Shown here in pieces: positions 45,851 through 64,000 of a DNA stretch of 64,000 bases. Under the pieces are notes generated by a model. It made no database searches. It was not told where the DNA came from and saw only the letters and a list, made by a program, of their open reading frames with translations. The first letter of the stretch is position 1. The number at the start of each line of letters is the position of its first letter. The stretch comes from Hyphomicrobiales bacterium. Its GTDB lineage: Bacteria > Pseudomonadota > Alphaproteobacteria > Rhizobiales > Rhizobiaceae. The stretch spans positions 1-64,000 of the forward strand of contig UCMS01000022.1 of the NCBI GenBank assembly GCA_900473805.1, read 5' to 3'. Made by a program: the position numbers and the translations under genes.

Positions 45851-46243
45851 GCTCTCACTCCACCCATTCGGAAGGAGCTTATCGTTACCAATGAATTAAT
45901 CGGGTCGTCGTTTACATGGGTTAATCAAACCCAAAAAACAATTCCTAAAAAATCTATTTACACACTTGTTCATATGCTCAGATTTTGTATCATCCAGTCA
46001 TTAGCAGTGCAGATGCCTGAAACGTACTTACTTATCACAATATAAAGCGCGGCTTTGATCCTGCGATCGGAGAACGCTAGAACAAACTCAGGGGAAACAT
46101 TCGAGAGAACAGGACAGAGGCGTCTCTTGATTGAGTACGTCTTGTGCCTGGGATTTTCCGTGTGTCGAGATCAGCGGCGCGCGGCCATCGTGAGAAGTGC
46201 AGTCATTTTCAGTCTGACATGTTGGCGTTGGGGACGTCGGAAA
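45851..46243. promoter_or_regulatory. AT-rich divergent control region of the polysaccharide locus
   Basis: About 390 bases between the AGE gene (minus) and the Crp/Fnr gene (plus). The part from ~45880 to ~46050 is markedly AT-rich in a GC-rich window, with A and T runs such as CCTAAAAAATCTATTTAC. MucR/Ros proteins prefer such DNA, so this is the likely site of local control. No exact -35/-10 pair was chosen. A frame reading into the Crp gene from 46055 is open but not family-like. Confidence 0.6.
45917..45933. repeat. Inverted repeat TGGGTT-N5-AACCCA, candidate operator
   Basis: A perfect 6-bp inverted repeat with a 5-base spacer lies in the AT-rich divergent region, about 70 bases upstream of the AGE start codon and about 310 upstream of the Crp/Fnr gene start. 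Its size and place suit a dimeric regulator such as the adjacent Crp/Fnr protein, but it is not a canonical Crp (TGTGA) or Fnr (TTGAT) site. Confidence 0.35.
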
Positions 46244-46942
46244 ATGCATCATGTATCACCTTTCATGCGACGAGTGGGCCAGCTCCTGCCGTCGTCGGGG
46301 CGGGCAAGTCCCGTACTCGATTCCGTCGGCTTCCGGTCGACCTGCCTGGAAAAAGGCAGCGAAATTCTCGGTGCGGGCACAACCGTCCGCCACGTTCTCA
46401 CGATCGGACATGGCCTTGCGATGCGGTACCGCCTGCTGCCCGACGGCAGCCGTCAGGTCATCATGTTCCTAACCGCCGGGGACATCTGCAATCCGCATAT
46501 CTATCCAACGGTGATTGATCACGGCATTGCCGCCGTCACCCCCGTTCGCATCGACCGCTTCGACTGTGAAAGCCTGATTGGGCTCAGCAACAGCGTGGTC
46601 GGCCTCAACCAGGCGCTTTGGACCCTGGCGGAAGAGCAGAACGCCATCATGCGCAACCACATCACCAGCCTGGGACGCGGCGACGCCAGAACCCGCGTCA
46701 TCATGCTGCTCAAGGAATTGTCGCTGCGTTTGTCGGTGTCGGCTGGCCAGGCGGGACCCGTCTTCATTCCCGTGACCCAGTCACTGCTCGCCGACGCGAT
46801 CGGCGTTACCCATATTCACTTCAACCGCATCATCGGCGACATGGGCAAGCGGGGCATCGTTGCCACCAGTCGCGGCGGCATTCTGGTAAACAGCATCTCC
46901 ATGCTGGAAAAACTCGGGGAAGATCTGATCGTCGCCGCCTGA
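46244..46942 (+). CDS. Crp/Fnr family transcriptional regulator
   Basis: A 232-residue regulator with a cyclic-nucleotide-type beta-roll (about 25-135; LPDGSRQVIMFLTAGDICN) and a C-terminal winged helix (SLLADAIGVTHIHFNRIIGDM at about 180-200). The beta-roll lacks the RxS phosphate-binding motif of Crp, and no Fnr-type Cys cluster is seen, so the signal is probably not cAMP or an iron-sulfur cluster. The start at 46244 has GGGGA upstream. It lies between the two arms, with its own strong terminator, so algD has a separate promoter. Confidence 0.87.
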   Translation: MHHVSPFMRRVGQLLPSSGRASPVLDSVGFRSTCLEKGSEILGAGTTVRHVLTIGHGLAMRYRLLPDGSRQVIMFLTAGDICNPHIYPTVIDHGIAAVTPVRIDRFDCESLIGLSNSVVGLNQALWTLAEEQNAIMRNHITSLGRGDARTRVIMLLKELSLRLSVSAGQAGPVFIPVTQSLLADAIGVTHIHFNRIIGDMGKRGIVATSRGGILVNSISMLEKLGEDLIVAA

Positions 46943-47036: not shown

Positions 47037-47076
47037 GCGGCAGACAGAATTCAAAATTCCGTCTGCCGCATTTTTT
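47037..47076 (+). terminator. Strong terminator between the Crp/Fnr gene and algD
   Basis: A 9-bp stem (GCGGCAGAC at 47037-47045 with GTCTGCCGC at 47061-47069), extended after one mismatch by five more pairs (GAATT with AATTC), is followed by ATTTTTTATTT. It separates the regulator from the alg genes by about 100 bases. Confidence 0.92.
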
Positions 47077-47176
47077 ATTTGAAAAATTCACATTTTAATT
47101 CCGTTTTAGTTAACCAATGTTGATGTAGTGGCCGATTTTATTTGTTTCAGTGAGGCTCTATACAAAGGAGCTGAAC

Positions 47177-48487
47177 ATGAAGATCAGTGTATTCGGTGCC
47201 GGCTATGTCGGCGCAGTATCAGCCGCATGCCTCGTAAAGGAAGGCCACCACGTCACGGCGGTCGATCCCGATCCCAACAAGATTGGCCCTCTGATGGCCG
47301 GCAAGTCCCCGATCATCGAGCCCGGACTTGAGGACATAATTCGCGACGGCGTCGCCTCGGGCCGGCTCACCGCCACCCACGATGCCGCGGCCGCGATCGC
47401 CGCGACGGACCTGTCGCTCATCTGTGTCGGTACGCCCTCCCTGCCGGATGGCAGCCTCAACACGGAATATCTCAAGCGCGTCGCCGAAGACATCGGTGCA
47501 GCGCTGAAGCTGAAGAACACCTTCCACTCCGTCGTCGTCCGCTCGACCTGTTTGCCGGGCACCACGGAGAGCGTCGTTGTCCCGGCGCTGGAAGCCGCCT
47601 CTGGAATGAAGGCTGCGGAAGATTTCGGCATCGCCTATCTGCCGGAATTCCTGCGCGAAAGCACGGCGATCAAGGACTATTACGATCCGGGCGTCATCGT
47701 CTTCGGCGCCTCCGACAAATTCACCCTCGACCGCCTGGAATCGATCCACGCGCCGATCAACCGCCCGAAATTCGTCGTCGACATCAAGACGGCGGAAGGC
47801 ATCAAATACACCAACAATGCCTGGCACGCGCTCAAGATCAGCTTCTCCAACGAGATCGGCAACATCCTCAGCAAGGCCGGCATCGACAGCCACGTCGCCC
47901 TCGACATTCTCTGCGCGGACGATCGCCTGAACATCTCCAAGGCCTATCTGACGCCCGGCTTCGCCTTCGGCGGCTCCTGCCTGCCCAAGGACCTGCGCGC
48001 GCTCATCAGCATGTCACGCCGCCAGGGAACGCCGGCCCCGCTGCTCGAGGCGACGCTCTCGGCCAACGAAGTGCAGATCAACCGCGCCTATAGCCTGATC
48101 GCCAACCAGGGCAGCCGCAAGGTCGGCATCGTCGGCCTGAGCTTCAAGCCAGATACCGACGACCTGCGCGAAAGCCCGCTCGTCGAGCTCGCCGAACGCC
48201 TCTATGGCCGCGGTTACCAGATCAAGATCTTCGATCCGAACATCCGCATGAACCGGCTCACCGGTGCCAATGCGAGCTTTGTCAGTGCCCGCCTGCCGCA
48301 TCTGGCCGAACTGCTCAATGAAGACATCGAGTCCGTGCTTTCCGACTCCGACGTGATCGTGGTCGGCAACCGGGCCGAAATGAACGGGTCGCTGAAGCGG
48401 GTGAAACCCGAGACCCACATCATTGACCTGGTCCGCGTCGACAAGACGCTGCGCAGCGAAGGCAATTATCATGGCATCTGCTGGTGA
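47177..48487 (+). CDS. algD: GDP-mannose 6-dehydrogenase AlgD
   Basis: Oxidises GDP-mannose to GDP-mannuronate, the committed alginate step. From the ATG at 47177 (AAAGGAG upstream) it has 436 residues, the same as Pseudomonas AlgD. NAD-binding GAGYVG (7-12), PEFLRESTAIKDY, the catalytic Cys268 in FGGSCLPKDLRAL, and GLSFKPDTDDLRESPLVELAE are visible. It ends in GICW, as I recall for Pseudomonas AlgD. These features separate it from UDP-glucose dehydrogenase. It opens the plus arm and overlaps alg8 by 17 bases. Confidence 0.95.
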   Translation: MKISVFGAGYVGAVSAACLVKEGHHVTAVDPDPNKIGPLMAGKSPIIEPGLEDIIRDGVASGRLTATHDAAAAIAATDLSLICVGTPSLPDGSLNTEYLKRVAEDIGAALKLKNTFHSVVVRSTCLPGTTESVVVPALEAASGMKAAEDFGIAYLPEFLRESTAIKDYYDPGVIVFGASDKFTLDRLESIHAPINRPKFVVDIKTAEGIKYTNNAWHALKISFSNEIGNILSKAGIDSHVALDILCADDRLNISKAYLTPGFAFGGSCLPKDLRALISMSRRQGTPAPLLEATLSANEVQINRAYSLIANQGSRKVGIVGLSFKPDTDDLRESPLVELAERLYGRGYQIKIFDPNIRMNRLTGANASFVSARLPHLAELLNEDIESVLSDSDVIVVGNRAEMNGSLKRVKPETHIIDLVRVDKTLRSEGNYHGICW

Positions 48488-49970
48488 CTTCACCTACAGC
48501 CCGGCCGCGCATGTCCTGATGGTCCTGGGGATAGCTGTGGCAGCGACATCGCTGCCCAGCCAGGCCTATGCCATCATCGACAGCAAGACCGGTCTGGCCA
48601 TCGGCCTGATTGGCGCCTGGCGCTATGGCTGGGGCATCCTGCACTTCCTGCGGGGCACCCTCTACCGCGCTTACGTCTATCCGCGCATGAAGCGCGAGGC
48701 CATGGCCAGGAAGCGGGAGGGCTTCGCCTCCTACTTCCTCGTCACCAGCTTCCGCATTCCCACGGAAACGACGATCGAAGTCTACCGCGCGGCCTTCGCC
48801 GCCGCACTGAAAGCGCCCGGCCCGGCAACCGTGGTGGCGTCGATCGTCGATCTCTCTGACCAGCGCATCATCAAGAAGCTCTATGCCATGATGGTGGCGG
48901 ACTCAGATCCGGTCGATCTCGTCATCGTGCGGATCGATGGCAGCGGCAAGCGCGATGCGCTTGCCTCGGGCTTTCGCGCCATTGCCCGCCTCTTCCCTGC
49001 CCCGGATGCCATGGTGGCCGTAATCGACGGCGACAGCATCGTTCCGGAAGATCTCGTCGAACAATGCGCGCCCTTCTTCCACGATCCGAATGTCGGTGCG
49101 CTGACCACGGACGAAATTGCCGAAGTGAACGGCAAATGGATCTTCCAGCAATGGTGGGCACTGCGCTTCGCCCAGCGTCACATCCTGATGTCATCGATGG
49201 GCCTCTCGCGCCGTGTTCTGACGCTGACCGGCCGCATGTCGATGTTCCGGGCCTCGATCATCTGCAACCCCGATTTCGTCGCCCAGGTCGAGGTCGACTA
49301 CATCGATCATCCGAGGCTGGGTCGATTCAAGTTTCTGACCGGAGACGACAAGTCGAGCTGGTTCTGGTTGCTGCGCAACGGCTACCAGATGCTCTATCTG
49401 CCCGACGTGATGGTGAAGACCATTGAGGATCCGCCGGCGAAAAGTTTCTTCAGCTCCGCCGCCATGCTCATGGTCCGCTGGTACGGCAACATGCTGCGCA
49501 CAAACCGGCGGGCGCTGGCGCTCGGCCCGCGCCGGATCGGATATTTCGTCTGGTGGGCAATCCTCGATCAGCGCATGTCGATGTGGACCTGCCTGGTGGG
49601 CGTCACGAGCGCCATCCTGGCCACGCTCCTGGTCTCGCCCTTCACCATCCTCGTCTATGCCGTCTGGATTCTGGCCTCCCGCTACGCGATCACGCTGTCG
49701 CTGCTGACGGCGAGACGGCAGATCTCGATCGTCGCGCCGCTGCTGCTCTATTTCAACCAGATCTTCGGATCGGCGATGAAGGTCTTCGTCTTCTTCCATC
49801 TGGATCGCCAGAAGTGGACCCGCCAGAACACCACGCTCGCCAAGGCAGATCGCAACTGGCTCGCGACCTATCGGAAATATGAATCCAAGCTCTACCAGTC
49901 GGTCAGCATCCTCGCTCTGATCACTGCCTGCAGCTTGATGATCGGCATCACATCCATTCCCCGTCTTTGA
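48471..49970 (+). CDS. alg8: Alginate polymerase glycosyltransferase Alg8
   Basis: Inner-membrane GT2 enzyme that polymerises mannuronate from GDP-mannuronate. At 499 residues it is close to Pseudomonas Alg8 (494). Two N-terminal membrane helices (about 10-70) precede the cytoplasmic catalytic domain with DGD (186-188), an acidic TGDDKSSWFWLLRNGYQ stretch and KTIEDP, then about four C-terminal helices (360-420 and 475-495). The ATG at 48471 lies inside the end of algD, with GAAGG upstream. It should work as a complex with Alg44, encoded 21 bases downstream. Confidence 0.93.
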   Translation: MASAGDFTYSPAAHVLMVLGIAVAATSLPSQAYAIIDSKTGLAIGLIGAWRYGWGILHFLRGTLYRAYVYPRMKREAMARKREGFASYFLVTSFRIPTETTIEVYRAAFAAALKAPGPATVVASIVDLSDQRIIKKLYAMMVADSDPVDLVIVRIDGSGKRDALASGFRAIARLFPAPDAMVAVIDGDSIVPEDLVEQCAPFFHDPNVGALTTDEIAEVNGKWIFQQWWALRFAQRHILMSSMGLSRRVLTLTGRMSMFRASIICNPDFVAQVEVDYIDHPRLGRFKFLTGDDKSSWFWLLRNGYQMLYLPDVMVKTIEDPPAKSFFSSAAMLMVRWYGNMLRTNRRALALGPRRIGYFVWWAILDQRMSMWTCLVGVTSAILATLLVSPFTILVYAVWILASRYAITLSLLTARRQISIVAPLLLYFNQIFGSAMKVFVFFHLDRQKWTRQNTTLAKADRNWLATYRKYESKLYQSVSILALITACSLMIGITSIPRL

Positions 49971-49991
49971 ACACGAACCGGAGTCTCGATC

Positions 49992-51119
49992 ATGAGAGGC
50001 ATATCCTACGAAGCTGAACTGCAGCGTCAGCACCCCCGCTACGGGCTCCCATTGAAGGCCACGATCGACGGACGCGAATATGACGTGCACGACTGGTCGA
50101 TGAATGGTTTTGCCATCAATGCCAAGGGCTTCTCAGCCGGCAAGAAAGTGATGACGCATCTCACCATTCCCTTCAGTGGCTACCATTTCAGCCTCACTCA
50201 CGTGCCCGCCGAAGTGCTGTACGCCACCGATAGCGACGGCCGCACGAGCCTGGTCTTCAGCGCCCTTGAGGACAGCCAGATCAGCCTGTTGAGTTACATG
50301 ACCGACGCGATTATCGCAGGCGAAGTGGTCAGAGCCGGAGACGTGCTCGATGTCGCCCGCCGTACCGACATGGTACGCTCCAAACAGGTGCCCGCGCCGC
50401 CGCGCCTGTCCACCGGCGCCCGCATTTCCCAGATGGGACGCCGGGTGGCGTCGACCGCCGGCGTTGCGGCGATCGGCGCGGCACTGATCGCCTTTCTGTC
50501 GGCGAATGTTTATGACGAACTCTATGTCGTGCGCCCGGAAAGCGCGAGCATTGCCGCCAAGACCGTCAACGTGGCGGCTCCGGCTGTGGGCCGCATCACC
50601 TTCATCAACGACAAGCCGCAGCTTGCCTTCGGCGAACCGCTGATCACCGTGAACCCGGCCGTCGGAGACCCGATCACGGTGGAATCGCCCTGTGACTGCG
50701 TCCAGACGGAACAGCGCTTCGCCAGCGGCGATTTCGTCCGCACCGGCGATCCCGTCGTTCGGCTGATGCGGGCGGACGCGCCGATCGTGGTTTCGGCCGC
50801 TGTCAGCGACAACAAGTTGATGAGCCTCTACGGCGTCAAGACAGCCTCGCTGGTTTATCCGGACGGCACCCATGTCAGTGACGCCGAAATCCTCTGGCTG
50901 CCGGGCAAGGGCGGGTCGCAATCCGACCTGCCGCGGGATCCGCTCACCGTGCTGATCGCACCGGAGAAGGCGCTGTCGACGGATATGCTCGGCCAGCCGG
51001 TCGAAGTCCGCTTCGACCTTTTCGCCGAGAGCACGATCGGACGGATGGTCCAGGCCGTTGCTGGCGCATTCGGCGCTGAATCCGCCGCCCAGGCCGTTGC
51101 CCAGGAGATCAAGCCATGA
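49992..51119 (+). CDS. alg44: Alginate co-polymerase Alg44 (PilZ c-di-GMP receptor)
   Basis: Binds c-di-GMP and activates Alg8. The 375-residue protein has an N-terminal PilZ domain with both ligand motifs intact, R12-x3-R16 and D34-x-S36-x2-G39, one membrane helix (about 152-173), and a periplasmic HlyD-like beta domain (180-350). Length and order match Pseudomonas Alg44 (389). GGAG lies upstream of the ATG. Polymer synthesis should therefore depend on c-di-GMP. It overlaps the algA-like gene by 4 bases. Confidence 0.94.
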   Translation: MRGISYEAELQRQHPRYGLPLKATIDGREYDVHDWSMNGFAINAKGFSAGKKVMTHLTIPFSGYHFSLTHVPAEVLYATDSDGRTSLVFSALEDSQISLLSYMTDAIIAGEVVRAGDVLDVARRTDMVRSKQVPAPPRLSTGARISQMGRRVASTAGVAAIGAALIAFLSANVYDELYVVRPESASIAAKTVNVAAPAVGRITFINDKPQLAFGEPLITVNPAVGDPITVESPCDCVQTEQRFASGDFVRTGDPVVRLMRADAPIVVSAAVSDNKLMSLYGVKTASLVYPDGTHVSDAEILWLPGKGGSQSDLPRDPLTVLIAPEKALSTDMLGQPVEVRFDLFAESTIGRMVQAVAGAFGAESAAQAVAQEIKP

Positions 51120-52525
51120 CCCGGATCCGTCCCGTCATACTCTGCGGCGGCTCGGGCACTCGCCTCTGGCCGCTCTCCCGCCGCCTGGAACCCAAGCAGT
51201 TCCAGACCTTGGGTGGCGAGCATTCGCTGTTCCAGGGCACGCTCGCCCGTTTCCGCGACGCGGACTTCGGCCGCGCCACCGTGCTCGTCAACACCCTGCA
51301 GGAGCCCCGCGTCCGATATGAGTTGCAGCAGATCGACCATCCCGCTGGCCTGCCGCTGGTGCTCGTCGAACCTGCCATGCGATCCACCGCACCGGCCATT
51401 GCCGCTGCGGCCCGTGTGCTGATGGCCGAAGATCCCGAAGCCGTCATGCTGGTGGTGCCGAGCGATCATCGCATCGGCCGGCCGGACCGGCTGCAGGAGG
51501 CCTACCTGGCCGCCCTTCCTTTCGTCAACGAGGGTGGCATCGCCCTGTTCGGTATCCGCCCGACCGCTCCGGAAACGGGGTTCGGCTACATTGAGGCCGA
51601 ACCCGCTGGTGAAGGCCAGGTCACCAAAGTCCTGAGCTTCGTCGAGAAGCCGAACTTCGAGCACGCGTCCCGCCTCGTCGCCGATGGCCGCCACACCTGG
51701 AACAGCGGCATCTTCATGTTCCGTGCCGACACCATCCTTGCAGAGCTCGCCAGCCACGCGCCGGACGTTCTGGCCGCCGTCGACGCGGGCATTGCGGAGG
51801 CAAGCCGGTCGGAGAACAGCCTGCGCATGTCGCAAAGTTTCGCAACCGCGCCGGAAATTTCCATCGACCATGCGGTGATGGAGCATTCGACCCGGCTGGG
51901 CGTGCTTCCGGTCTCCCCGGAATGGAACGATCTTGGCTCGTTCGAAGCCCTTTGGGAAACCGGGCAGCACAATGGCGAGGAAAACGTCCTCAAGGGGAAT
52001 GTCCTGCTGCGTGACGTCCGCCGCAGCTATATCAGCGGTTCCCGCCGTCTGATCTCAGTCATCGGTCTCTCCAACATCGTCGTCGTCGATACCGACGACG
52101 TGGTGCTGGTGGCATCGCGTGCCCAGTCCCAAGACGTGAAGTTCATCGCGCAGCATCTGGCGAAAGCCGGCCACCCCGCAGCCGATCGTCATCTGCTGCA
52201 GCAGCAGACGGGCGGAAGCCGCCGCGTGCTCGAAGAAGGGCCAGGCTTCCGTGTCGAGCGCATCGACATTCTGCCGAACTCCACGCTGGAACTCGACCAG
52301 GAAGAAGCACCCGCCTCGGCCAGCTTTGTGGTCTTGTCCGGCGAGGCAGTGCTTGGAGAACCCGGCGCCGAAACGGTGCTGACCCAGGGGTTCGGGCTTG
52401 ATCTCCGCTCGCGCCAGCAATTGGTCCTCAGCAATCCGGGAGAAGAGGCCGCAATCTTGCTTCTGACCCTCACCCGGCCCGTGGAAGAGGTCGACAGCCT
52501 CAGCCAGCAACGAAAGGTGGGCTGA
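51116..52525 (+). CDS. algA: Mannose-1-phosphate guanylyltransferase, AlgA-like with degenerate isomerase domain
   Basis: Makes GDP-mannose from mannose-1-P and GTP. The 469-residue length and order match type II bifunctional AlgA/XanB. The pyrophosphorylase signature GGSGTRLWPLSR...PKQF is at 11-29 and sugar-binding FVEKP at 175-179. The C-terminal cupin (about 355-465) should hold the metal-binding QxHxxRxEHW motif of phosphomannose isomerase; instead residues 386-414 read LPNSTLELDQEEAPASAS and then FVVLSGEAVLG, with no His. The isomerase half is therefore probably inactive (inference). It is coupled to alg44 and to the epimerase gene. Confidence 0.9.
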   Translation: MTRIRPVILCGGSGTRLWPLSRRLEPKQFQTLGGEHSLFQGTLARFRDADFGRATVLVNTLQEPRVRYELQQIDHPAGLPLVLVEPAMRSTAPAIAAAARVLMAEDPEAVMLVVPSDHRIGRPDRLQEAYLAALPFVNEGGIALFGIRPTAPETGFGYIEAEPAGEGQVTKVLSFVEKPNFEHASRLVADGRHTWNSGIFMFRADTILAELASHAPDVLAAVDAGIAEASRSENSLRMSQSFATAPEISIDHAVMEHSTRLGVLPVSPEWNDLGSFEALWETGQHNGEENVLKGNVLLRDVRRSYISGSRRLISVIGLSNIVVVDTDDVVLVASRAQSQDVKFIAQHLAKAGHPAADRHLLQQQTGGSRRVLEEGPGFRVERIDILPNSTLELDQEEAPASASFVVLSGEAVLGEPGAETVLTQGFGLDLRSRQQLVLSNPGEEAAILLLTLTRPVEEVDSLSQQRKVG

Positions 52526-55500
52526 TGGCCACGCTCCCCTCCCCGGCGGCCGGATCCCGACTGCGAATGGTCTTGCTCTCGATCTCCTTGGCCTGGGCGG
52601 TGCCGGCCTCGGCATCGATCGAGAGCGAAGTGGACATGGCCCAGACCATCGTGACCGAAAGCACCGTGAAGCTGGACTCGGAGCGTGACCCCCATGCGCG
52701 CGTGCGTCTGCTGGACGACGCGGTGGATGCGATCAGCGTGCTCGAAGGTCTCGGACGCGACGACCGGCCGGGAACGGGCGCCAAAAAGGTCCTGCAGGAT
52801 CTCGCCGCCCAGGCGATAACGCCCGACATCCTGCGCCTCAGCCTCGTCGAGGCTCTGACCGCCCTGATCGGCCCCGGCGACGCAGGCCTTCGGGCAGACC
52901 TCGACGCCAAGGCGGCGTTGGAAGCCATTCGCGACCCCGCCTATCGGTCTGCCGGCTGGACGGCGCTGGCTGCGGCCCATGTGAGGACGGGTCAAGGCGA
53001 GGAAGCCGAACGCCTGGCGACCCTGGCGATCGAGGAAGCGCGCGGCATCGATCGCGATGCAACCCGTGACGGCGCGCTGCAGGCGGCTGTCCTCGTGTTT
53101 CCGAACGGCAAATTGCCCGAGGGCATTCTCGAGATCGCCACCAATTCCGTCGTCCTCGCCCGCACCCGCGCCGCAATGTACCAGACGGTCGCACGCGACG
53201 CGCTCAGCGCCGAAGGCATGACCGATCCTGCGGCCGAAACCCTCAAAAACCGCGCCGAAGCTGCCTTGGCTGCCAAGGATACGGCCCAGGCGCTCGTGTT
53301 CGCGCAGGCTCTCGACCGCGACGAGGACATCCGCGCCGAATACCTCGACCGCGTGCTGCGGTTGGCCCTGGACAGCGGTGACGACCGGTTGGCTCTGCGC
53401 ACGGCGAAGTCCATGTCCCGCGACCGCGACCAGAACAAGGCGCTCCGCCAGCTGATCGACGCCCGCATCGATCGCGGCAAGGCCCTGCGCGCCCGTGAGA
53501 TTGTGCCCCTGCTGCTGACTGCCAAGGCCCGGATTGATGCCGATATCGCCATCGCCAAGGATCTCCGTCGTCAGGGTTACATCGAGGCCGGGCGCGAAAT
53601 TCTGCTGCAAAACGCCGACATGAAGCTCGACGATCCCGATGCGACGGCCAACCTCGTCTCGGCGCTTGCGACGTTTGCGGAATTCGGGCCCGCCCGGACC
53701 CTTGCCGGTGCCTTGCCGGCCGGCGATCAGCGATCCTCCGCCATGGCCCGCCTGGTCAAAGGTCTGGCAGATGATGACCTGCTGGATCAGGCAAACGAAC
53801 TGCTGTCCGAAGTCTCGGGTCCGCAGGACCAGAGCTACGCCCGGTCCGCCATTGCCCGGGCCTTGGTCAAGCGTGGCGACGCGAAAGGGGCGAGCGCGAG
53901 CCTGGCCCAGATCGATGCTGGGCCGGATCGGGATCGCGTGCTGGAAGCACTGGCCGAGCACGCCGTCAAAAAGGGAGACCTGGGACTGGCCCGTGACTAC
54001 CTGACGGAGACCGCCGGCGACGAAACGCGCTGCCGTATCCTGATCGAAATCGCGCTCGCCACATCAGGCAAGGCGTCCGCCCGCGAGATCCTCGATGAAG
54101 CCGTAGCCCTGATCGCCAATGGAAAGGATGTCGACGACAGCCGTGCCGAGATCGCCGTGGCCTTTGCCCGGATCGGTGAACTCGCCCGCGCAGACAGTCT
54201 GCTCGACACGATCACCGACCAGAGTGCCCGCCGTGAAGCCGAAAGCGAGATCGCCGAACTCCTCGTAAAACAGGGCGCCCTCGAACCCGCCCGGAGCCGG
54301 CTGCAGCGTCTTCCGGCCGACAGTGCAGCGACGCTGAGCGCTGACCTCGCTTTTGCATCCTTCGAGAAAAACGGGGAGGTCGAGAGCTTTGTAAAAAGCG
54401 TGGCAGACCTCCCCTGGCAGGCGCGCGTCCCGGCCCTTCGCCGCATGGCGGAAGTCCGGGCAAAGGCGCTCGACGTCAAGGGATGGCTGAACGATCCGCA
54501 GATCGATCCCTTGGCGTCGACCACGCCGCCATCAAAGGGCCAGCAGGCCGATTTCACCATCGGGCGGCATCAGATCTTTGCGCCCGCCCCATCGACAAGG
54601 GCCCTGCCGGGCATACGCATGCCCGACATCTTCGAACATGACGCCGCCATGTTGCGCGGCCGTGTTCCCGCCCCCGCCGACGGCGTCGGCCACCTCGCCA
54701 TTCTCGGTTTCAGCCCCTTCAGTCTCGAGGCCTTCAAGCTCAGCACCGGCGGCGAGGCGGCGATCCACCAGGTTCAGCTTTCCCAGCAGATGACCTGGCC
54801 GCGCTATATTGCCGTCGAAAAGGGCGTCGTCACCCTGGGAACCCTCTTGCGCGACCTTCCGGAAACAACGGCCCGCCGCCTGCTCGTGGTCGAGGGTGAT
54901 GATCTTCTGGTCCGGGTCCCGATCATCGTCCTTCCCGGCGCAACGCTCCTGATGTCCGGCGTGGAGTTCAGCCGCTACAAGCTCGGCGTTCAGTCCGGCG
55001 CGTTCATCGCAGTTGCCGGGCGCCTCGTCGTCCAGGATGCCGAAATCCTCGGTTACGACGAAATTGCCGGCCGCCCCGCCGTCGCGACGGACAAGACGCG
55101 CGCCAATTTCCGTCCTTTCATTACCGCCTGGGGCGGCAGCGACATCCAGATCGCCGGCAGCCGGCTGGCCATGCTCGGTTACGACAGCAGCAAGGCTTTC
55201 GGCCTCACCCAGTCCAGCGGTGCCGCCGTTCAGTCGCTCTATGCCTTCGACGACAACCGTCCCACCGGCAACATCGTCGACAACAGCTTCGAGAACCTGC
55301 GGTACGGCTATTACAGCTACGAGGTCGACCATGTCCGGGTGATCGGCAACGAATATCGCGACAACATCATCTACGGTATCGACCCGCACGACCGCTCCCG
55401 CCACCTGCTGATCGCGCTCAACACCGCCTACGGCTCGCAGAAGAAGCACGGGATCATCGTCTCCCGCGAGGTCGATGACAGCTTCATCGTCGGAAACGTC

Positions 55501-56145
55501 TCCCTGCACAACAAGGGCTCGGGCATCATGCTCGACCGCACCAGCGTTCGAAACATCGTCTACGCCAACACTGCGGTTGCCAACGACGGCGATGGCCTGA
55601 CCTTCTACGAGAGCGGATGCAACATCGCCGCTGCCAATGACCTGAGCCGCAACCGCCGCGCAGGCGTGAAGATCCGCAACAGCGCCGATGTCGGCATGTA
55701 TGACAACCGCATCGATGCCAACACCCAGAGCGGGGCCGACATCTACATCGCCGATCTGCGCCAGTCGCCGGAAGGCCATGCCCGCAATTTCGAACTCGAC
55801 CCCTATCAGGCGCTCGTCACGGCCGTCATCAGCGGCAATGTTTTCTCCGAAAACGCAGACGCCATAAATGTAGCGGGCGCATCCCAGCTTCAGCTGGACG
55901 GGAACATGTATCGCCGCCAGCGCGACAATATTTTTGCCGGAGACCTGCGCCAGCTTTCCCCGTTCCTTCTGCGCCTGCGCGAGACATCCGCCCTCCTGAC
56001 AGACGACAGCTGCGAGCCGGAAGAGGCGGTCAAGAGCTGCAATTTCGGCGGCTGGCCGCATCCGCCGCGCAAGCACAACATCTGCACCGGCATGATGCTG
56101 TCCCCGGCACCGGCCGGAACCGGCGAGGCGGCACGGGATGGCTAG
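52525..56145 (+). CDS. algG: AlgG-like mannuronan C5-epimerase with large helical-repeat N-terminus
   Basis: Converts mannuronate to guluronate in the polymer within the periplasm. At 1206 residues it is over twice the size of Pseudomonas AlgG (about 543). A signal peptide (cut after about residue 30, PASA-S) is followed by about 630 residues of Ala-rich helical-hairpin repeats (TPR/HEAT-like; for example AVAFARIGELARADSLLDTI), then a right-handed beta-helix AlgG region (about 690-1190). The catalytic YGIDPHDRS has D953-P-H955-D956, followed by KKHGIIVSREVDDSFI as in AlgG. The start overlaps the AlgA-like stop by one base (TGATG), so the fusion is not a misread start. Confidence 0.92.
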   Translation: MATLPSPAAGSRLRMVLLSISLAWAVPASASIESEVDMAQTIVTESTVKLDSERDPHARVRLLDDAVDAISVLEGLGRDDRPGTGAKKVLQDLAAQAITPDILRLSLVEALTALIGPGDAGLRADLDAKAALEAIRDPAYRSAGWTALAAAHVRTGQGEEAERLATLAIEEARGIDRDATRDGALQAAVLVFPNGKLPEGILEIATNSVVLARTRAAMYQTVARDALSAEGMTDPAAETLKNRAEAALAAKDTAQALVFAQALDRDEDIRAEYLDRVLRLALDSGDDRLALRTAKSMSRDRDQNKALRQLIDARIDRGKALRAREIVPLLLTAKARIDADIAIAKDLRRQGYIEAGREILLQNADMKLDDPDATANLVSALATFAEFGPARTLAGALPAGDQRSSAMARLVKGLADDDLLDQANELLSEVSGPQDQSYARSAIARALVKRGDAKGASASLAQIDAGPDRDRVLEALAEHAVKKGDLGLARDYLTETAGDETRCRILIEIALATSGKASAREILDEAVALIANGKDVDDSRAEIAVAFARIGELARADSLLDTITDQSARREAESEIAELLVKQGALEPARSRLQRLPADSAATLSADLAFASFEKNGEVESFVKSVADLPWQARVPALRRMAEVRAKALDVKGWLNDPQIDPLASTTPPSKGQQADFTIGRHQIFAPAPSTRALPGIRMPDIFEHDAAMLRGRVPAPADGVGHLAILGFSPFSLEAFKLSTGGEAAIHQVQLSQQMTWPRYIAVEKGVVTLGTLLRDLPETTARRLLVVEGDDLLVRVPIIVLPGATLLMSGVEFSRYKLGVQSGAFIAVAGRLVVQDAEILGYDEIAGRPAVATDKTRANFRPFITAWGGSDIQIAGSRLAMLGYDSSKAFGLTQSSGAAVQSLYAFDDNRPTGNIVDNSFENLRYGYYSYEVDHVRVIGNEYRDNIIYGIDPHDRSRHLLIALNTAYGSQKKHGIIVSREVDDSFIVGNVSLHNKGSGIMLDRTSVRNIVYANTAVANDGDGLTFYESGCNIAAANDLSRNRRAGVKIRNSADVGMYDNRIDANTQSGADIYIADLRQSPEGHARNFELDPYQALVTAVISGNVFSENADAINVAGASQLQLDGNMYRRQRDNIFAGDLRQLSPFLLRLRETSALLTDDSCEPEEAVKSCNFGGWPHPPRKHNICTGMMLSPAPAGTGEAARDG

Positions 56146-57244
56146 TCACACCTCCCTCGTGATCGCCTTCTGCCTGTCTCTGAGCCTCGCCCTCCCGGCG
56201 ACGGCCTCGAGCTGGGCAGGCCTCTTCGACGTCGAGGATCGGGCGGCCAAGCTCCAGACGCCTGCCTATAACGAGATGCGGGCGCTTTGCCTGGCCGTCG
56301 CGATCGATCCCGCCTGGGACAGGCTGAAGCCGATCCGCAAACTGACGACCACCGAAGGCTACGGCTCCGACACATCCGCCGAGGATTTCTCCTGGGCCGT
56401 CATGGTGCTCTCCGGCCGGGCTCTCGCCGGAGACGCGGACGCCCGCAACCGTCTCGCCGGACTGCTCGACCGCTGGGCCGAGGCAGGCGCGTTCACTGAA
56501 ACGGAAGAGATCAACGACGCCTATTATGCGCTTAAGCGCCAGCTTCTGCCGTTGGTGGTTGCCTATGCCGTTCTCGAGCCGGGTCTGGAGGCCGAGCGTT
56601 CCAGCCGCTTGCGCGCCTGGATCGATGGGCTTGTCCGCAAGATCGACCACAACTTCGATGGGGATGTCGATCACAACAACCATCGGGTGCTGGCCGACAG
56701 CGTTCTTGCCGTCTGGGGCGCCGAGACCGGCGACAAGGCCATGATGGAAAAGGGCCTCGCCCGCTATGACACCGTGCTCGATGAAGTCCGGCCGGATGGA
56801 ACCCTTGCGCTTGAGGCCAGACGTGGCGCGCGCGCCCTCTGGTACCAACGCCAGACCCTGTCCAGCCTGACCGTCATCGCCGAGACGGCCCGCGGCCATG
56901 GTTGGGATTTTTACGGTCGAACCTCGCGTGATGGCCGCTCCTACGCCACCATGCTCGGCGCCCTCATGAACGGCATTGCATCGCCGATCCTGGTCGCCGT
57001 CTATTCCGCGGAGAACCACATTCCGGGCCCGGAAAAGGACTTCCACAATCTGGAACTCGGCTTCCTCGAAACGCGCGGCCACGGGCGACACTACATGGGC
57101 TGGGCGGAAGCGGCCATCCTCTCCGGCCAGGGCCTCGCCTTCGATCGGCTGAAGGCTCTCTTTTCCCGGCAGATCGTGGCACGGCGGCCGCTGATCGATG
57201 AATTCATTGGTGGAAATTCGACATGTTTCTGGGGGCAGCCATGA
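56138..57244 (+). CDS. algL: AlgL-like periplasmic alginate lyase (PL5)
   Basis: Cleaves polymannuronate by beta-elimination; in Pseudomonas it clears polymer stranded in the periplasm. The 368-residue protein has a signal peptide (to about 23, LPATA-S) and the PL5 alpha/alpha fold. Catalytic residues I can place: N181-H182 in HNNHRVLADSV, R229 and Y236 in ARRGARALWYQ, all at a constant offset of 20 from Pseudomonas N201/H202/R249/Y256. The usual Lys66 position is not clearly conserved (EGYGSD here). It overlaps algG by 8 bases. Confidence 0.88.
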   Translation: MASHTSLVIAFCLSLSLALPATASSWAGLFDVEDRAAKLQTPAYNEMRALCLAVAIDPAWDRLKPIRKLTTTEGYGSDTSAEDFSWAVMVLSGRALAGDADARNRLAGLLDRWAEAGAFTETEEINDAYYALKRQLLPLVVAYAVLEPGLEAERSSRLRAWIDGLVRKIDHNFDGDVDHNNHRVLADSVLAVWGAETGDKAMMEKGLARYDTVLDEVRPDGTLALEARRGARALWYQRQTLSSLTVIAETARGHGWDFYGRTSRDGRSYATMLGALMNGIASPILVAVYSAENHIPGPEKDFHNLELGFLETRGHGRHYMGWAEAAILSGQGLAFDRLKALFSRQIVARRPLIDEFIGGNSTCFWGQP

Positions 57245-59979
57245 CCAGCCTTGCACAAATTCTAGCTGTTGGCCTCATGGTCCTTGGGCTGCTTTCGTCC
57301 ACAGCCACGGCCGAGGAAACGGACACAGCCGCTCGCTTCGCAGAGGAGCAGGCTCTGGTCGAAACGCTTTCCCGCAGCACGGCCGCTGAAGATCAGCGCC
57401 ATCTCGGCGATCTCTATCGTGACGGCCTCATCTTCAGCGCCGAAAACCCGATCCGCAAAGCGGATCGTGACGCGGCGATCGCCGCCTACCGCCGCGCGAT
57501 GGAACTCGGTGACCGTTCGCCCGCCGTCACCGTTTCACTCGGCCGCCTGCTGATGCGCAAGTCGGGCGGCGACGGTTTCGCCGAGATTGAACCGACCCTG
57601 CAGGCGCTCGCGCTCGAGGGCAACGGCGACGCCGCCTATCTGCTTGCCGTCGATGCGATGGAAAACCGGCATGTACCGCTCGAACAGGCGATACCCCGGC
57701 TGGAAGCCGCCGCTATGCTCGGAAGTGCCGGTGCCGTGTCCGACCTCGTTGCAGCCGGTGTCCCGGTCGGCGAGACATTGGAGCGGGCCGTGCTCACCCG
57801 TCTGACGCAGCGCGCAGAAGCGGGCCAGGCTGCGGCTGCGCTGTCCCTGTTCCGCATTTATGCCGACGGCCTGTTGACCGGGCGCGATCCGCAAACGGCC
57901 ATGAAATGGCTGGAGCGGGCGGCTGAAGACGATCCGGTCACCGCCGTGGAGCAGTTGGCCGAGCAATATCTCACAGGTCTGAACGTGGAGGCCGATCCCG
58001 TCCGCGCCGCCGACCTCTTCCGCCAGGCCGCCCGCGCTGGCGGACGCAATGCCGCCCTGGCCCTCGGTCGCGCGGCCATTGCCGAGACCGGCATGCCCGT
58101 CTCGAACGCGGAGGCCCGCTGGTGGCTGCAGCGGGCGAGCGAAGCGGATGTGCGCACGGCAGCAGTCGAGTTGTCGAACCTCGATCTCAAGATCGCGCTC
58201 GCCTTTGAAGGTGCGCCCGCGGAACGCGAAAAGCTGATCATGGCGGCGCTTGAACCGATCGCGGACGATTCGGATGCGCTTGCCAATCTCGCCAACCAGC
58301 ATTGGCGCTCTGCCCAGGCGGAAGTCATCGGCAAGGTTTTGCTGCCGCTTCTGGAGAAACAGGCGCTGGCGGGGAAAACCGTGGCGGCGCTCGCCTACAA
58401 TGCATGGCTCGAAGCCAATGGCCGGCCGTTGCCCGATGCGGTTGCCCGTGCCCTGATCGAAAGCCTGCGCAAGACCCCCTTTGTCAGTGTCGGCTTCTCC
58501 AACTTCACGATTGCCACCCTGGCCCTTGATGGCCGCATGTCGCAAGCCGTGCTCGGCCGCAATCAAGCGATCCGCCTGCTGTTCAAGGCGGCTGACGACA
58601 ATGTCGGTCAGGCCATGCTGCGGCTCGGCCAGCTCTATCGCCAGGGCGATCAGCTTGCGCGCAGCGACAGCTTTGCCAAGCGCTGGTTCATCCGGGCGAG
58701 CGAACGCGCCGTCGAACGCGCCGGCTGGGAACTCGCCGACATGCAGGCAGGTTCGCGGGATCCCGCAGAGTGGGAAGATGCTGAGCGCTTCTATCTCGCA
58801 CAGATCGACGCCGGAGATCCACGCGGAGGTCTGGCCTTGGTTCAGGCTCGTCTGCGCCAGGACACCTTGGATGGCATCACGCTGGAGCGTGCAAAATCGG
58901 TCGTCCAGACGCCAACGGATACGATCGCTCTCGCGTCCCTGCTCTTCTCCACCGGCATTCCCGGACACGTGCAGGAAGCGGCAGCCCTTCTCACCACCCT
59001 CCGGCAGGATGAATTGGAGCCTGGCGACCTTGTGGCTCTTGGCCGTCTGAAGTCATCCATGGCCGTCACGCCGGAGCAGACGGCTGCGGCGTCTTCCATC
59101 CTCGAAAAGGCCGCTGCAACCGGTTCCCAGGTCGCCCGCACCGCGCTTGCCGCGAGCTACCTGTCGTCGGTCAAGCAGCGGGACAAGGTTCCTGCCGTCA
59201 TCGCCATGCTGCAGAAGGTGCTTGACGACAACCCCAAGGACCCCGAGGCCCGCCTCTTGCTCGCCCGTGCCTATATGCTCGGCATCGGCGTCGAGCGCGA
59301 CGCCCGCAAGGCCGCATCCCTGGTGGCCGATGTCCGCAGTGAAAATGGCATGCGCATGCCGAAGGCCACCCTTCTGGAAGCCGATTGGCTCGCCTTCTCC
59401 TCGGCTGGTCGTGATCCCGGCAAAGCGGTGGCGCTTCTCGATGCCCAGGCGGCCCGCGGCTCCTCGGCCGCCGAACGCGCCCTCGGCGAGTATTATCTCA
59501 ACGGCTTCGGCCCTGCCATCCGCCCCGATGCCGCCGCCACCCGCATGTATTCCGCGGCCCATTCCGGAGACAAGGAAGCCATGGCCGCGCTTGGCCATAT
59601 GCTGCTGAACGGCTACGGCCTCAATCAGTCGCGCGAGGCCGGCCTCGGTTGGCTGGAGCGCGCAGCCAATGCCGGCAACACCGCGGCGATGTACGAATTG
59701 TCCCGCGTCTTTGCGCTGCATCCGGAGGCACAGAGCGACACCCGCCAGGCCATCGCCTGGCTGCAGAAAGCGGCGGAACGCAATCATCCCAACGCCGCCT
59801 ACCAGCTCGGCCTCGCTTACCTGACAGGCGAATGGGTCGACAAGGATGTGGCTCAGGCATCCTTCTGGTTCGATCGTTCGGCACAATCCGGAAATCTGCT
59901 GGCCGCCCGAACGCTGAAGGCCGTCCGCGAAGGCGCCGCGCCCAAGGAGGCCGCGATCGTATCCGACACGGCAGACTGA
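57241..59979 (+). CDS. Secreted Sel1/TPR-repeat protein, AlgK-like scaffold candidate
   Basis: A 912-residue precursor. The ATG at 57241 overlaps the algL stop (ATGA) and starts a signal peptide (MTSLAQILAVGLMVLGLLSS, cut near TATA-E). Nearly all the rest is tandem ~36-residue Sel1-like repeats, clear at the end (GYGLNQSREAGLGWLERAAN; AIAWLQKAAERNHPNAAYQL). There is no lipobox Cys, unlike the AlgK lipoprotein of Pseudomonas, which is about half this size. In that system AlgK joins the export channel AlgE and AlgX. A similar scaffold role is inferred from repeats and place. Confidence 0.82.
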   Translation: MTSLAQILAVGLMVLGLLSSTATAEETDTAARFAEEQALVETLSRSTAAEDQRHLGDLYRDGLIFSAENPIRKADRDAAIAAYRRAMELGDRSPAVTVSLGRLLMRKSGGDGFAEIEPTLQALALEGNGDAAYLLAVDAMENRHVPLEQAIPRLEAAAMLGSAGAVSDLVAAGVPVGETLERAVLTRLTQRAEAGQAAAALSLFRIYADGLLTGRDPQTAMKWLERAAEDDPVTAVEQLAEQYLTGLNVEADPVRAADLFRQAARAGGRNAALALGRAAIAETGMPVSNAEARWWLQRASEADVRTAAVELSNLDLKIALAFEGAPAEREKLIMAALEPIADDSDALANLANQHWRSAQAEVIGKVLLPLLEKQALAGKTVAALAYNAWLEANGRPLPDAVARALIESLRKTPFVSVGFSNFTIATLALDGRMSQAVLGRNQAIRLLFKAADDNVGQAMLRLGQLYRQGDQLARSDSFAKRWFIRASERAVERAGWELADMQAGSRDPAEWEDAERFYLAQIDAGDPRGGLALVQARLRQDTLDGITLERAKSVVQTPTDTIALASLLFSTGIPGHVQEAAALLTTLRQDELEPGDLVALGRLKSSMAVTPEQTAAASSILEKAAATGSQVARTALAASYLSSVKQRDKVPAVIAMLQKVLDDNPKDPEARLLLARAYMLGIGVERDARKAASLVADVRSENGMRMPKATLLEADWLAFSSAGRDPGKAVALLDAQAARGSSAAERALGEYYLNGFGPAIRPDAAATRMYSAAHSGDKEAMAALGHMLLNGYGLNQSREAGLGWLERAANAGNTAAMYELSRVFALHPEAQSDTRQAIAWLQKAAERNHPNAAYQLGLAYLTGEWVDKDVAQASFWFDRSAQSGNLLAARTLKAVREGAAPKEAAIVSDTAD

Positions 59980-60044
59980 AATCTGAGCAGACGACTGCAC
60001 GATCAAGACGAATGCACACACGCAACGCGACTGGAGGATAGCAC

Positions 60045-62822: not shown

Positions 62823-64000
62823 GTTTCAGGCTGCATCCGCGATGCTGTCAGGGCAGCTGCTCCGCGTGGCTTCCCGGTTGCTCAGCACGGCCTTCGCCCT
62901 CGGCCTCGGTTTCACCCTCGTCCTCTCTGCCCCGGTGGCGAGCCCCGCGATCGCAGCGGGCCCTGAAACCATGCTGCGCCAAAACCTGCCGGCCGCCCTG
63001 CGCGGCGATCGCACGGCCGTCCGCGAGGTCGCCCGTGCCATCGTCCGGATCGGACCACGCTCGTTCAAGGCTGCCGCCCAAATGCGCCCGCTCTTGCGCA
63101 GCGAGGCCATGCGCGGATCGAGCGCTGCGGCCAACGCCTATGGAATCCTGCTGCAATACGGCATCGGCGGGGCCAAGAATCCCAAGGAAGCGGCGAGTTG
63201 GTATGCGAAGGGCGGCGCCAACGGCAATCTCAGCGCCTCGAAGAATGCCGCACTGGCTTATGCCCTGGGTTGGGGCGTCCAGCGCAACACCAAGCGCGCC
63301 AATCAGTTGCTGGCCAAGGTGCCGTCCGATCAGCGCAGCCGCAAGATGCTCGAGATCAGCAAGGCCCTGATGCATCCCGGTCGCGAAGAACCTGAACTGG
63401 CCCTTTACTGGCTGGAACGCGCCGTATCGCTCGACAAGAGCGGCCAGTTGAACGCCGCAGGGGCCTATCGAAGCCTGGCCGGATCGATGGAGAACGGTGA
63501 CGAAAAACTGCTCGAGTGGCTGCAACCGCTTGCCGACAAGGGCAATGCGCGCGCCACGATCTTCCTCGCCCGGCACTACGAGGAAAACGGGACGGACCTC
63601 GCCCGGGCCAAGGCCGTCGACCTCTATCTTCAGGCCGCAGAAACCAAGGATGCGGATGCTTATGAAGGCCTCGGCCGGATGCTCGCCGTCACCCAGCCGC
63701 CGCTGTCGGACCGCATCCTGGCCTTCCTTGAGGAAAAGGCGCAAGCCGGCGTGCCATCCGCCAACCTGGCCCTTGGCACCCACTATCTCTTTGGCGCAAC
63801 CACATCAGGCGAGATGCGCGAAAAGGGCCTGGCTTATATGGAAGTCGCCGCCCGCGCCGGGGATCCGGAAACCCAGTATCGGCTGGCCCTTGTCCTGTTG
63901 GGCGATGCCAGCGACACCACACGGCACGACCTCGCCCGGGCCTATCTCGTCCTGTCTGCGGCGGGCGGCAACAAACGCGCCGCCCAGGCCGCAAAGCAAT
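62806..64000 (+). CDS. Third secreted Sel1/TPR-repeat protein (cut by window end)
   Basis: An open frame of 398 codons running off the window with no stop. The ATG at 62806 lies inside the previous gene's end, with AAGG upstream. An N-terminal hydrophobic segment (about 28-48) ends in a likely signal cleavage (AIAA-G). Sel1-like repeats follow (YGIGGAKNPKEAASWYAKGG; REKGLAYMEVAARAGDPETQ). It is the third such gene in a row, so the alg transcript continues beyond the window. Its full length, and whether outer-membrane export genes follow, cannot be seen. Confidence 0.8.
   Translation, partial: MVSFSKFQAASAMLSGQLLRVASRLLSTAFALGLGFTLVLSAPVASPAIAAGPETMLRQNLPAALRGDRTAVREVARAIVRIGPRSFKAAAQMRPLLRSEAMRGSSAAANAYGILLQYGIGGAKNPKEAASWYAKGGANGNLSASKNAALAYALGWGVQRNTKRANQLLAKVPSDQRSRKMLEISKALMHPGREEPELALYWLERAVSLDKSGQLNAAGAYRSLAGSMENGDEKLLEWLQPLADKGNARATIFLARHYEENGTDLARAKAVDLYLQAAETKDADAYEGLGRMLAVTQPPLSDRILAFLEEKAQAGVPSANLALGTHYLFGATTSGEMREKGLAYMEVAARAGDPETQYRLALVLLGDASDTTRHDLARAYLVLSAAGGNKRAAQAAKQ

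What the first reader, a model, noticed from the sequence alone, without database searches (positions are those of the whole stretch)
47177..64000. Alginate-type polymer operon in a rhizobial genome
algD, alg8, alg44, algA, algG and algL homologues occur in one tightly packed directon, with Cys268 of AlgD, DGD of Alg8, both PilZ motifs of Alg44 and DPHD of AlgG all intact. Characterised alginate producers are Pseudomonas and Azotobacter. A full polymerase-epimerase-lyase set next to typical rhizobial genes points to a polyuronate exopolysaccharide that is little or not described for this group. I cannot tell from sequence alone whether it has been reported.
Basis: partly seen in the sequence, partly recalled or inferred. 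Interest (0 to 1): 0.85.

Follow-up and report, generated by a model that had tools for sequence, protein, structure and literature searches.

The report
Rhizobial alginate locus without export porin
A soil bacterium related to root-nodule rhizobia carries the genes to make an alginate-like gel, and a second such gene set elsewhere in its genome, but the outer-membrane channel through which other bacteria export alginate was not found in it.

Summary
Window 47177-62822 plus the next ORF is a tightly coupled alginate-type operon (algD-alg8-alg44-algA-[solenoid]algG-algL-Sel1 genes). AlgD is GDP-mannose type by score and tree, with the genome's own UDP-glucose dehydrogenase as control; Alg8 groups beside Pseudomonas-type Alg8; Alg44 has a PilZ plus membrane-fusion fold. 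The locus is larger than reported: it runs on into a second PL5 lyase and a 1,367-residue RTX protein with an AlgE-type mannuronan-epimerase module, and divergent genes encode GDP-mannose precursor enzymes and a PrtD-type secretion system. A second, acetylation-type alginate operon lies on another contig. Differences from Pseudomonas/Azotobacter: no AlgE porin found in the genome (0 of 11 alphaproteobacterial carriers in one set against 5 of 5 Pseudomonas-type; in another set 4 of 34 carriers match the porin family, all off the alg contig), AlgG fused to a predicted alpha-solenoid, a degenerate PMI half of AlgA beside a separate AGE-family gene, and an epimerase subfamily with Asn for a conserved active-site Asp (11 of 11). 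The kind is known; I saw no description of this architecture in listings of eight open-access searches (supplements unread). Patchy: 15 of 199 genomes of the family. No chemistry was testable.

The parts
39354..40649 (-). HlyD-type periplasmic adaptor of a type I secretion system
   Evidence: NCBIfam TIGR01843 349 bits, cut-off 209; beside the operon in L006-L010, L015, L016
40646..42727 (-). PrtD-type ABC transporter of the same secretion system
   Evidence: TIGR01842 669 bits, cut-off 510
43011..44546 (-). phosphohexomutase, predicted phosphomannomutase (AlgC role)
   Evidence: Pfam PGM_PMM I-IV; position in the locus; specificity inferred
44543..45850 (-). AGE-family epimerase/isomerase, predicted mannose-6-phosphate isomerase
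   Evidence: PF07221 226 bits; present in 10 loci, in none of which an AlgA with intact PMI motif was found; specificity inferred
46055..46942 (+). Crp/Fnr-family regulator (start codon uncertain)
   Evidence: PF13545, PF00027; upstream of algD in 12 loci, L006-L017
47177..48487 (+). algD, GDP-mannose 6-dehydrogenase
   Evidence: 1mfz 441 bits over full length, UDP-glucose dehydrogenases at most 256; tree
48471..49970 (+). alg8, GT2 mannuronan synthase
   Evidence: 48-50% identity to Pseudomonas-type Alg8; tree
49992..51119 (+). alg44, PilZ c-di-GMP receptor plus periplasmic barrel
   Evidence: profile to 4xrn 1.5e-18; AlphaFold model pLDDT 84 matches Alg44 PilZ and membrane-fusion proteins
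51116..52525 (+). algA, mannose-1-phosphate guanylyltransferase with degenerate PMI half
   Evidence: TIGR01479 370 bits, just under cut-off 373; QMHHHRAEHW motif lost
52525..56145 (+). algG with N-terminal solenoid: signal-like segment (by eye), alpha-solenoid (about 28-649), mannuronan C5-epimerase (about 736-1112)
   Evidence: NF038177 302 bits; 4nk6 245 bits; model of the N-terminal part pLDDT 85
56138..57244 (+). algL, PL5 lyase
   Evidence: PF05426; 1hv6 54 bits with NNH, Arg and Tyr aligned
57223..59979 (+). Sel1-repeat protein a, 918 aa, N-terminal signal-like segment (by eye)
   Evidence: PF08238 133 bits
60045..62822 (+). Sel1-repeat protein b, 925 aa
   Evidence: PF08238 53 bits
62806..64000 (+). 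Sel1-like protein c (by eye), runs off the window (ends at contig position 64056)
   Evidence: ORF in L003, start. Beyond the window on the same contig: PL5 lyase 64164-65186 and AlgE-type RTX epimerase 65329-69432

Best explanation
This is a c-di-GMP-controlled alginate (mannuronate/guluronate) synthesis and remodelling locus. The divergent isomerase and mutase with AlgA make GDP-mannose, AlgD oxidises it to GDP-mannuronate, Alg8 with Alg44 polymerises it and pushes the chain into the periplasm, AlgG on its own solenoid scaffold epimerises some residues, and the PL5 lyases clear or trim chains. Outside the cell an RTX epimerase, secreted by the adjacent PrtD-type system, would add further guluronate. 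The chain leaves through an unknown outer-membrane route, because no AlgE porin was found. Shown here: gene identity, order, key residues, linkage, and failure of two searches to find the porin. Inferred: every enzyme activity, the product, secretion of the epimerase by this transporter, and the export route.
For: AlgD is GDP-mannose type by score and tree, while the genome's third paralogue scores 669 bits against UDP-glucose dehydrogenase and 221 against the GDP-mannose enzyme. Alg8 by tree; Alg44 by profile and fold; AlgG and both PL5 lyases. The RTX protein's A-module best matches AlgE6 and AlgE4, 289 and 281 bits. The A-module occurs in 7 of 63 genus genomes, all 7 also with Alg8; in 6 it lies 16.8-16.9 kb downstream of alg8 on the same contig and strand, in the seventh, a fragmented draft, on another contig. 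In the family sample it occurs in 5 of 199, 4 of them with Alg8 on the same contig. Secretion genes, mutase, isomerase, regulator and operon stay together in 7 loci. Gene overlaps and resident GC.
Against: No AlgE porin found. The extracellular epimerase lacks the Asp of the YG(F/I)DPH(D/E) motif and Asp119; in AlgE7 the D119A change left 0.5-2% activity (PMC8824271, passages). The A-module is not needed for carriage of Alg8: 16 of 23 genus and 11 of 15 family genomes with Alg8 lack it, and one family genome (G089) has an A-module without Alg8 at the threshold used. Alg8 gives no PDB match even as a profile. No paper seen reports alginate from this group.
Confidence: 0.85

Rival explanations
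1. The polymer is another polyuronate, such as a glucuronan, and the alginate-like enzymes have changed substrate.
For: A rhizobial (1-4)-beta-D-glucuronan is recalled from the older literature (no call). The extracellular epimerase has clade-wide active-site changes.
Against: AlgD matches GDP-mannose dehydrogenase far better than any UDP-glucose enzyme and groups apart from the genome's own UDP-glucose dehydrogenase; GDP-mannose genes are part of the locus; AlgG keeps the mannuronan-epimerase motif.
Confidence: 0.05
2. The operon is intact but its polymer stays in the periplasm or at the cell envelope, so no porin is needed.
For: No AlgE porin in 11 of 11 alphaproteobacterial carriers, with the search working in 5 of 5 Pseudomonas-type genomes; two PL5 lyases and large Sel1 proteins with signal-like N-termini (signals by eye).
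Against: An RTX epimerase with no signal-like N-terminus (by eye) in one locus with a type I secretion system points to substrate outside the cell. Another, unrelated barrel could serve.
Confidence: 0.1
3. The RTX protein is not an active epimerase: it binds or cleaves alginate, like the inactive AlgY or the bifunctional lyase AlgE7 of Azotobacter.
For: Asn152 and Ala119 in 11 of 11; D119A nearly inactivates AlgE7 (passages).
Against: Tyr149, His154, Asp173, Asp178, Arg195 and His196 are kept in 11 of 11 and the substitutions are uniform, not scattered; residue 148 is Ala, not the Arg that AlgE7 needs for cleavage; D152N kept more activity than D152E in AlgE7 (passages).
Confidence: 0.3
4. A recently acquired Pseudomonas alginate cassette.
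For: Patchy distribution: 15 of 199 genomes of the family.
Against: Alphaproteobacterial AlgD and Alg8 of this type form their own clades apart from the Pseudomonas-type ones, gene order and the fusion differ, GC is close to that of the flanks.
Confidence: 0.02

Closest known systems
Pseudomonas/Azotobacter alginate operon (algD-8-44-K-E-G-X-L-I-J-F-A; order recalled, partly seen in L114)
   Same: algD-alg8-alg44 at the head, AlgG epimerase, PL5 AlgL, AlgA guanylyltransferase, PilZ-bearing Alg44
   Different: No AlgE porin found, no separate AlgK; AlgX/I/J/F absent from this operon; algA is fourth, not last; AlgG is 1,000 residues or more in 49 of 56 loci; PMI half of AlgA degenerate; Crp/Fnr-type regulator and secretion genes attached
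AlgE1-7 secreted mannuronan epimerases of Azotobacter vinelandii and their type I exporter (EexDEF, name recalled)
   Same: A-module 281-289 bits to AlgE4/AlgE6, RTX repeats, PrtD-type exporter in the locus
   Different: His117, Ala119, Ala148 and Asn152 in 11 of 11; four Big/cadherin-type repeats between RTX blocks; gene linked to the synthase operon
'Atypical' alginate operons of the 2020 synthase-operon survey (PMC7112194, passages only)
   Same: That survey reports alginate operons that lost outer-membrane transport loci or acetylation genes
   Different: Described in its legend for deep-sea bacteria; supplementary tables could not be read, so overlap with this group is not excluded
Second alginate operon of this genome (L082) and its Rhodobacteraceae, Martelella and Ciceribacter relatives
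   Same: algD-alg8-alg44-algA-algG, a Sel1 protein and a PL5 lyase
   Different: Has algI, two AlgX-domain genes and algF; Alg44 has lost the PilZ motif pair (7 of 7) and AlgG its catalytic motif (6 of 6)

Membership tests
bacterial alginate synthesis system | GDP-mannose dehydrogenase AlgD | tested here: met
   with control
bacterial alginate synthesis system | Alg8 GT2 synthase with Alg44 PilZ co-polymerase | tested here: met
bacterial alginate synthesis system | AlgG epimerase and PL5 AlgL in the operon | tested here: met
   AlgG below the strict NCBIfam cut-off
bacterial alginate synthesis system | outer-membrane porin AlgE | tested here: not met
   PF13372 and a Pseudomonas-type AlgE query both find nothing in the genome
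bacterial alginate synthesis system | AlgK periplasmic TPR protein | tested here: inconclusive
   Solenoid on AlgG and Sel1 proteins exist; fold search gives generic solenoids, AlgK not among the 50 listed
bacterial alginate synthesis system | AlgX/I/J/F acetylation genes | tested here: not met
   none among the ORFs of this operon; AlgI, AlgF and two AlgX-domain genes in the second operon
bacterial alginate synthesis system | product made of mannuronate and guluronate | not testable with these tools
   needs chemistry
AlgE-type secreted epimerase | A-module followed by RTX modules | tested here: met
AlgE-type secreted epimerase | YG(F/I)DPH(D/E) motif said to be shared by all alginate epimerases (PMC8824271, passages) | tested here: not met
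   YG(F/I/V)NPHE in 11 of 11
AlgA bifunctional PMI-GMP | metal-binding motif of the isomerase half | tested here: not met
   intact in 19 of 44 AlgA of the genome-contig loci and 5 of 5 Pseudomonas-type

The most novel reading that the evidence does not exclude
Hyphomicrobiales have a separate lineage of alginate factories that export the polymer without an AlgE porin, through a barrel not yet recognised and a solenoid-AlgG/Sel1 periplasmic scaffold, and remodel it outside with a new subfamily of RTX epimerase that works with Asn in place of the conserved active-site Asp; some genomes run two factories, one for acetylated, non-epimerised mannuronan not controlled by c-di-GMP through Alg44 and one for epimerised, c-di-GMP-controlled alginate.
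Probability: 0.4. Interest if true: 0.78.

Novelty: new variant of a known kind. Interest (0 to 1): 0.62.

Why it matters
A review names Azotobacter and Pseudomonas as the bacterial alginate producers and adds that putative clusters exist in many other genomes (PMC4444821, passages). Relatives of this operon occur in named soil and root-nodule genera such as Rhizobium and Microvirga, so alginate may be an overlooked matrix or plant-contact polymer there. A synthase system whose known porin is missing makes the question of how such polymers cross the outer membrane in these bacteria testable, and an RTX epimerase with a changed active site may be of use for alginate engineering.

Tried and rejected
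UDP-glucose-type dehydrogenase: rejected by scores, tree and the genome's own UDP-glucose enzyme as control. AlgK fused to AlgG: not supported; the fold search returned generic solenoids. A porin hidden elsewhere in the genome: two searches negative. Recent transfer from Pseudomonas: rejected. Single-sequence PDB searches with Alg8 and Alg44 found nothing; the Alg8 profile also nothing. A regulator site: a TTAAC-N4-GTTGATGT-like block upstream of algD recurs with changes in 8 aligned sequences, not pursued. Literature: ten searches, eight of them for alginate in this group or in bacteria at large (all but 65 and 92). I saw listings with starts of abstracts (20 of 149 papers, 25 of 29, 20 of 24) and passages of ten papers, none read whole; none of this reports alginate synthesis in Rhizobiales. 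For Rhizobium sp. L01 polysaccharide the one passage seen lists mannuronate and guluronate among the standards only. That Rhizobium meliloti has an AGE-family phosphomannose isomerase is recalled; one search did not confirm it.

Rows dropped: the AlgD tree used 63 rows (61 of 85 extracted AlgD-like sequences plus two of the window's genome), the Alg8 tree 81 rows (79 of 105 plus two); near-duplicates, chiefly Microvirga, Rhizobium and Pseudomonas-type, were left out by locus number, and stretches of 330 residues or fewer were never taken. Alg44 alignment: 40 sequences, the window's and 39 of the 61 extracted; Alg8 alignment: 34; AlgG N-terminal alignment: 28, the window's and 27 of 49 fused proteins.
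Full report
What is there. Families: UDPG/GDP-mannose dehydrogenase, GT2, guanylyltransferase, beta-helix AlgG, PL5 lyase, Sel1 repeats. GC from the regulator to the window's end (0.644) is near that of the window (0.632); GC3 of eight operon genes is 0.75-0.82 against 0.83 for secA.

Which sugar. AlgD scores 441 bits over 436 residues against GDP-mannose dehydrogenase and at most 256 against any UDP-glucose enzyme in the PDB. NCBIfam's equivalog-level hits are UDP-sugar models far below their cut-offs; the GDP-mannose call rests on the PDB match and the tree. The genome has three members: both AlgDs, and a third with 37% identity that scores 669 bits against a UDP-glucose dehydrogenase and 221 against the GDP-mannose enzyme. 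In the tree of 63 sequences both AlgDs lie with Pseudomonas-type AlgD, and the third lies with Halomonadaceae enzymes across a fully supported branch (short search, SH-aLRT only, several long branches flagged). Alg8 gives the same picture: 44 alphaproteobacterial rows and a Pseudomonas-type clade join at 95 (81 rows, same cautions).

Co-polymerase. Alg44 alone hits nothing in Pfam, NCBIfam or the PDB. A profile of 40 relatives matches the Alg44 PilZ structures at 1.5e-18 and membrane-fusion proteins weakly. The predicted structure (pLDDT 84, pTM 0.53) has an N-terminal PilZ barrel, one long helix and a barrel domain; its nearest solved structures are Alg44 PilZ domains and then membrane-fusion proteins. 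Both c-di-GMP motifs are present in 52 of 61 Alg44s extracted; seven of the nine exceptions are the operon-2 clade, the others L017 and L081.

The locus is larger than the window. On the same contig the operon continues with a third Sel1-like protein, a second PL5 lyase and a 1,367-residue protein. Residues 3-391 of that protein match AlgE6 and, over 3-361, AlgE4, at 289 and 281 bits; RTX blocks and four Big/cadherin-type repeats follow. Upstream and divergent lie an AGE-family isomerase, a phosphohexomutase, and the ABC and HlyD parts of a PrtD-type secretion system. In Azotobacter a type I system exports AlgE epimerases (reference cited in PMC7385640, passages). A TolC-type partner over cut-off lies elsewhere in the genome. 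The block secretion genes-mutase-isomerase-regulator-algD recurs in seven loci (L006-L010, L015, L016; L010 is cut after alg8); L046 has secretion genes, epimerase and algD side by side in another order; four Microvirga loci have the epimerase divergent from the operon.

Linkage. The A-module occurs in 7 of 63 genomes of the genus, all among the 23 with Alg8; none of the 40 without Alg8 has it (Fisher p = 4e-4, not corrected for kinship). In six of the seven it lies 16.8-16.9 kb from alg8 on the same contig and strand; in the seventh (G259), a fragmented draft, the two are on different contigs. Sixteen of the 23 Alg8 genomes lack it, many of them with lower-scoring Alg8 types. In the family sample (GTDB family of the window's genome, by its nearest named relatives Rhizobiaceae) the A-module occurs in 5 of 199 genomes, four with Alg8 on the same contig at 14-18 kb; one (G089, 47% identity) has no Alg8 at E 1e-60, and 11 of 15 Alg8 genomes lack the A-module. 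Across a sample of the phylum, 24 of 398 genomes have Alg8 at E 1e-40.

A distinct epimerase subfamily. Eleven of eleven alphaproteobacterial A-modules read carry His117, Ala119, Ala148 and Asn152 where AlgE6 has Lys, Asp, Gly and Asp, and all keep Tyr149, His154, Glu155, Asp173, Asp178, Arg195 and His196 (those of G102, G133, G193, G089 and G259 were not read). A study of AlgE7 (PMC8824271, passages) states that all alginate epimerases share YG(F/I)DPH(D/E), takes His154 and Tyr149 as base and acid, found that D152N keeps more activity than D152E, that D119A keeps 0.5-2%, and that Arg148 is needed for cleavage. So the subfamily keeps base and acid, lacks the lyase determinant, and has changed the network around them; whether it epimerises is open.

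Periplasmic epimerase. DPHD is present in 35 of 56 AlgGs of the loci; it is D-x-H-D in 14 Microvirga, NPHD in L017 and lost in all 6 of the operon-2 clade.

Precursors. The metal motif of the isomerase half of AlgA is intact in 19 of 44 AlgAs of the loci (18 Microvirga and L042) and 5 of 5 Pseudomonas-type, and lost in both operons here. Ten loci carry the AGE-family gene; in seven AlgA's motif is lost and in three no complete AlgA was found in the DNA held, L010 being cut before it. I infer that the AGE-family enzyme takes over as mannose-6-phosphate isomerase; that Rhizobium meliloti has such an enzyme is recalled, not confirmed.

Missing porin. PF13372 finds nothing in this genome, which is 99.6% complete in 59 contigs. 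In 20 genomes searched with it and with a Pseudomonas-type AlgE (from G336), 0 of 11 alphaproteobacterial carriers match and 5 of 5 Pseudomonas-type do; of the four others, one of three of group f51 matches PF13372 only and G462 matches weakly. Among 34 carriers searched before, 4 match PF13372, all on contigs other than the one with alg8, two of the contigs being too short to exclude neighbourhood. The 14 control genomes ring only in Bacteroides. AlgK is not identified: the solenoid on AlgG (49 of 56 AlgGs have 1,000 residues or more) is predicted well (pLDDT 85) but resembles generic solenoids. A survey of 1,733 genomes found 64 alginate operons and describes atypical ones without outer-membrane loci in deep-sea bacteria (PMC7112194, passages), so a porin-less operon as such is not new.

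The second operon. Contig C16 holds algD-alg8-alg44-algA-algG-algI-AlgX-domain gene-orf-AlgX-domain gene-algF-Sel1-algL. Its AlgG lacks the catalytic motif, as in 6 of 6 of its clade read, and its Alg44 lacks the PilZ motif pair, as in 7 of 7. The simplest reading is an acetylated mannuronan without epimerisation and without c-di-GMP control by Alg44. Of 63 genus genomes, six (G000, G229, G244, G258, G259, G281) have two Alg8 genes.

Novelty. The system kind is known; the architecture is a variant. Eight literature searches for alginate in this group or in bacteria at large gave no report of it in what I saw (listings partly capped, passages only); only open-access text is held and no supplements were read, so absence from print is not established.

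Certainty. Alginate-type polymer locus: about 0.85. Secreted protein active as epimerase: about 0.7. Export by an unrecognised route to the outside: likely but unproven.

Noticed in passing
L082:1341-17533 (own genome, contig C16): A second alginate operon with acetylation genes, an AlgG without catalytic motif and an Alg44 without PilZ motifs.
   Followed up: yes
L018-L034 and L036 (18 Microvirga loci): Four loci (L018, L028, L031, L033) have both the DPHD motif in AlgG and an AlgE-type A-module; the other fourteen have D-x-H-D variants and no A-module was found in the DNA held, which is short upstream in L025.
   Followed up: partly
L065-L069, L071-L075, L064, L080: Alg8 homologues in Halomonadaceae, Enterovibrio, Marinimicrococcus and a cyanobacterium; the Halomonadaceae ones sit with a dehydrogenase that groups with UDP-glucose dehydrogenase, and in the others no AlgD was found in the DNA held, so the Alg8 family may make other polymers too.
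   Followed up: no
window 30210-32351: TPR plus glycosyltransferase family 41 (O-GlcNAc-transferase type) gene after secA, followed by an MdoC-like acyltransferase, a flippase and an acetyltransferase.
   Followed up: no
window about 47050-47180: TTAAC-N4-GTTGATGT-like block upstream of algD, conserved with changes, possible site of the Crp/Fnr-family regulator.
   Followed up: no
L040, L042: Operons with alg8-alg44-algG-algL and AlgX-domain matches but no algD found in the DNA held.
   Followed up: no
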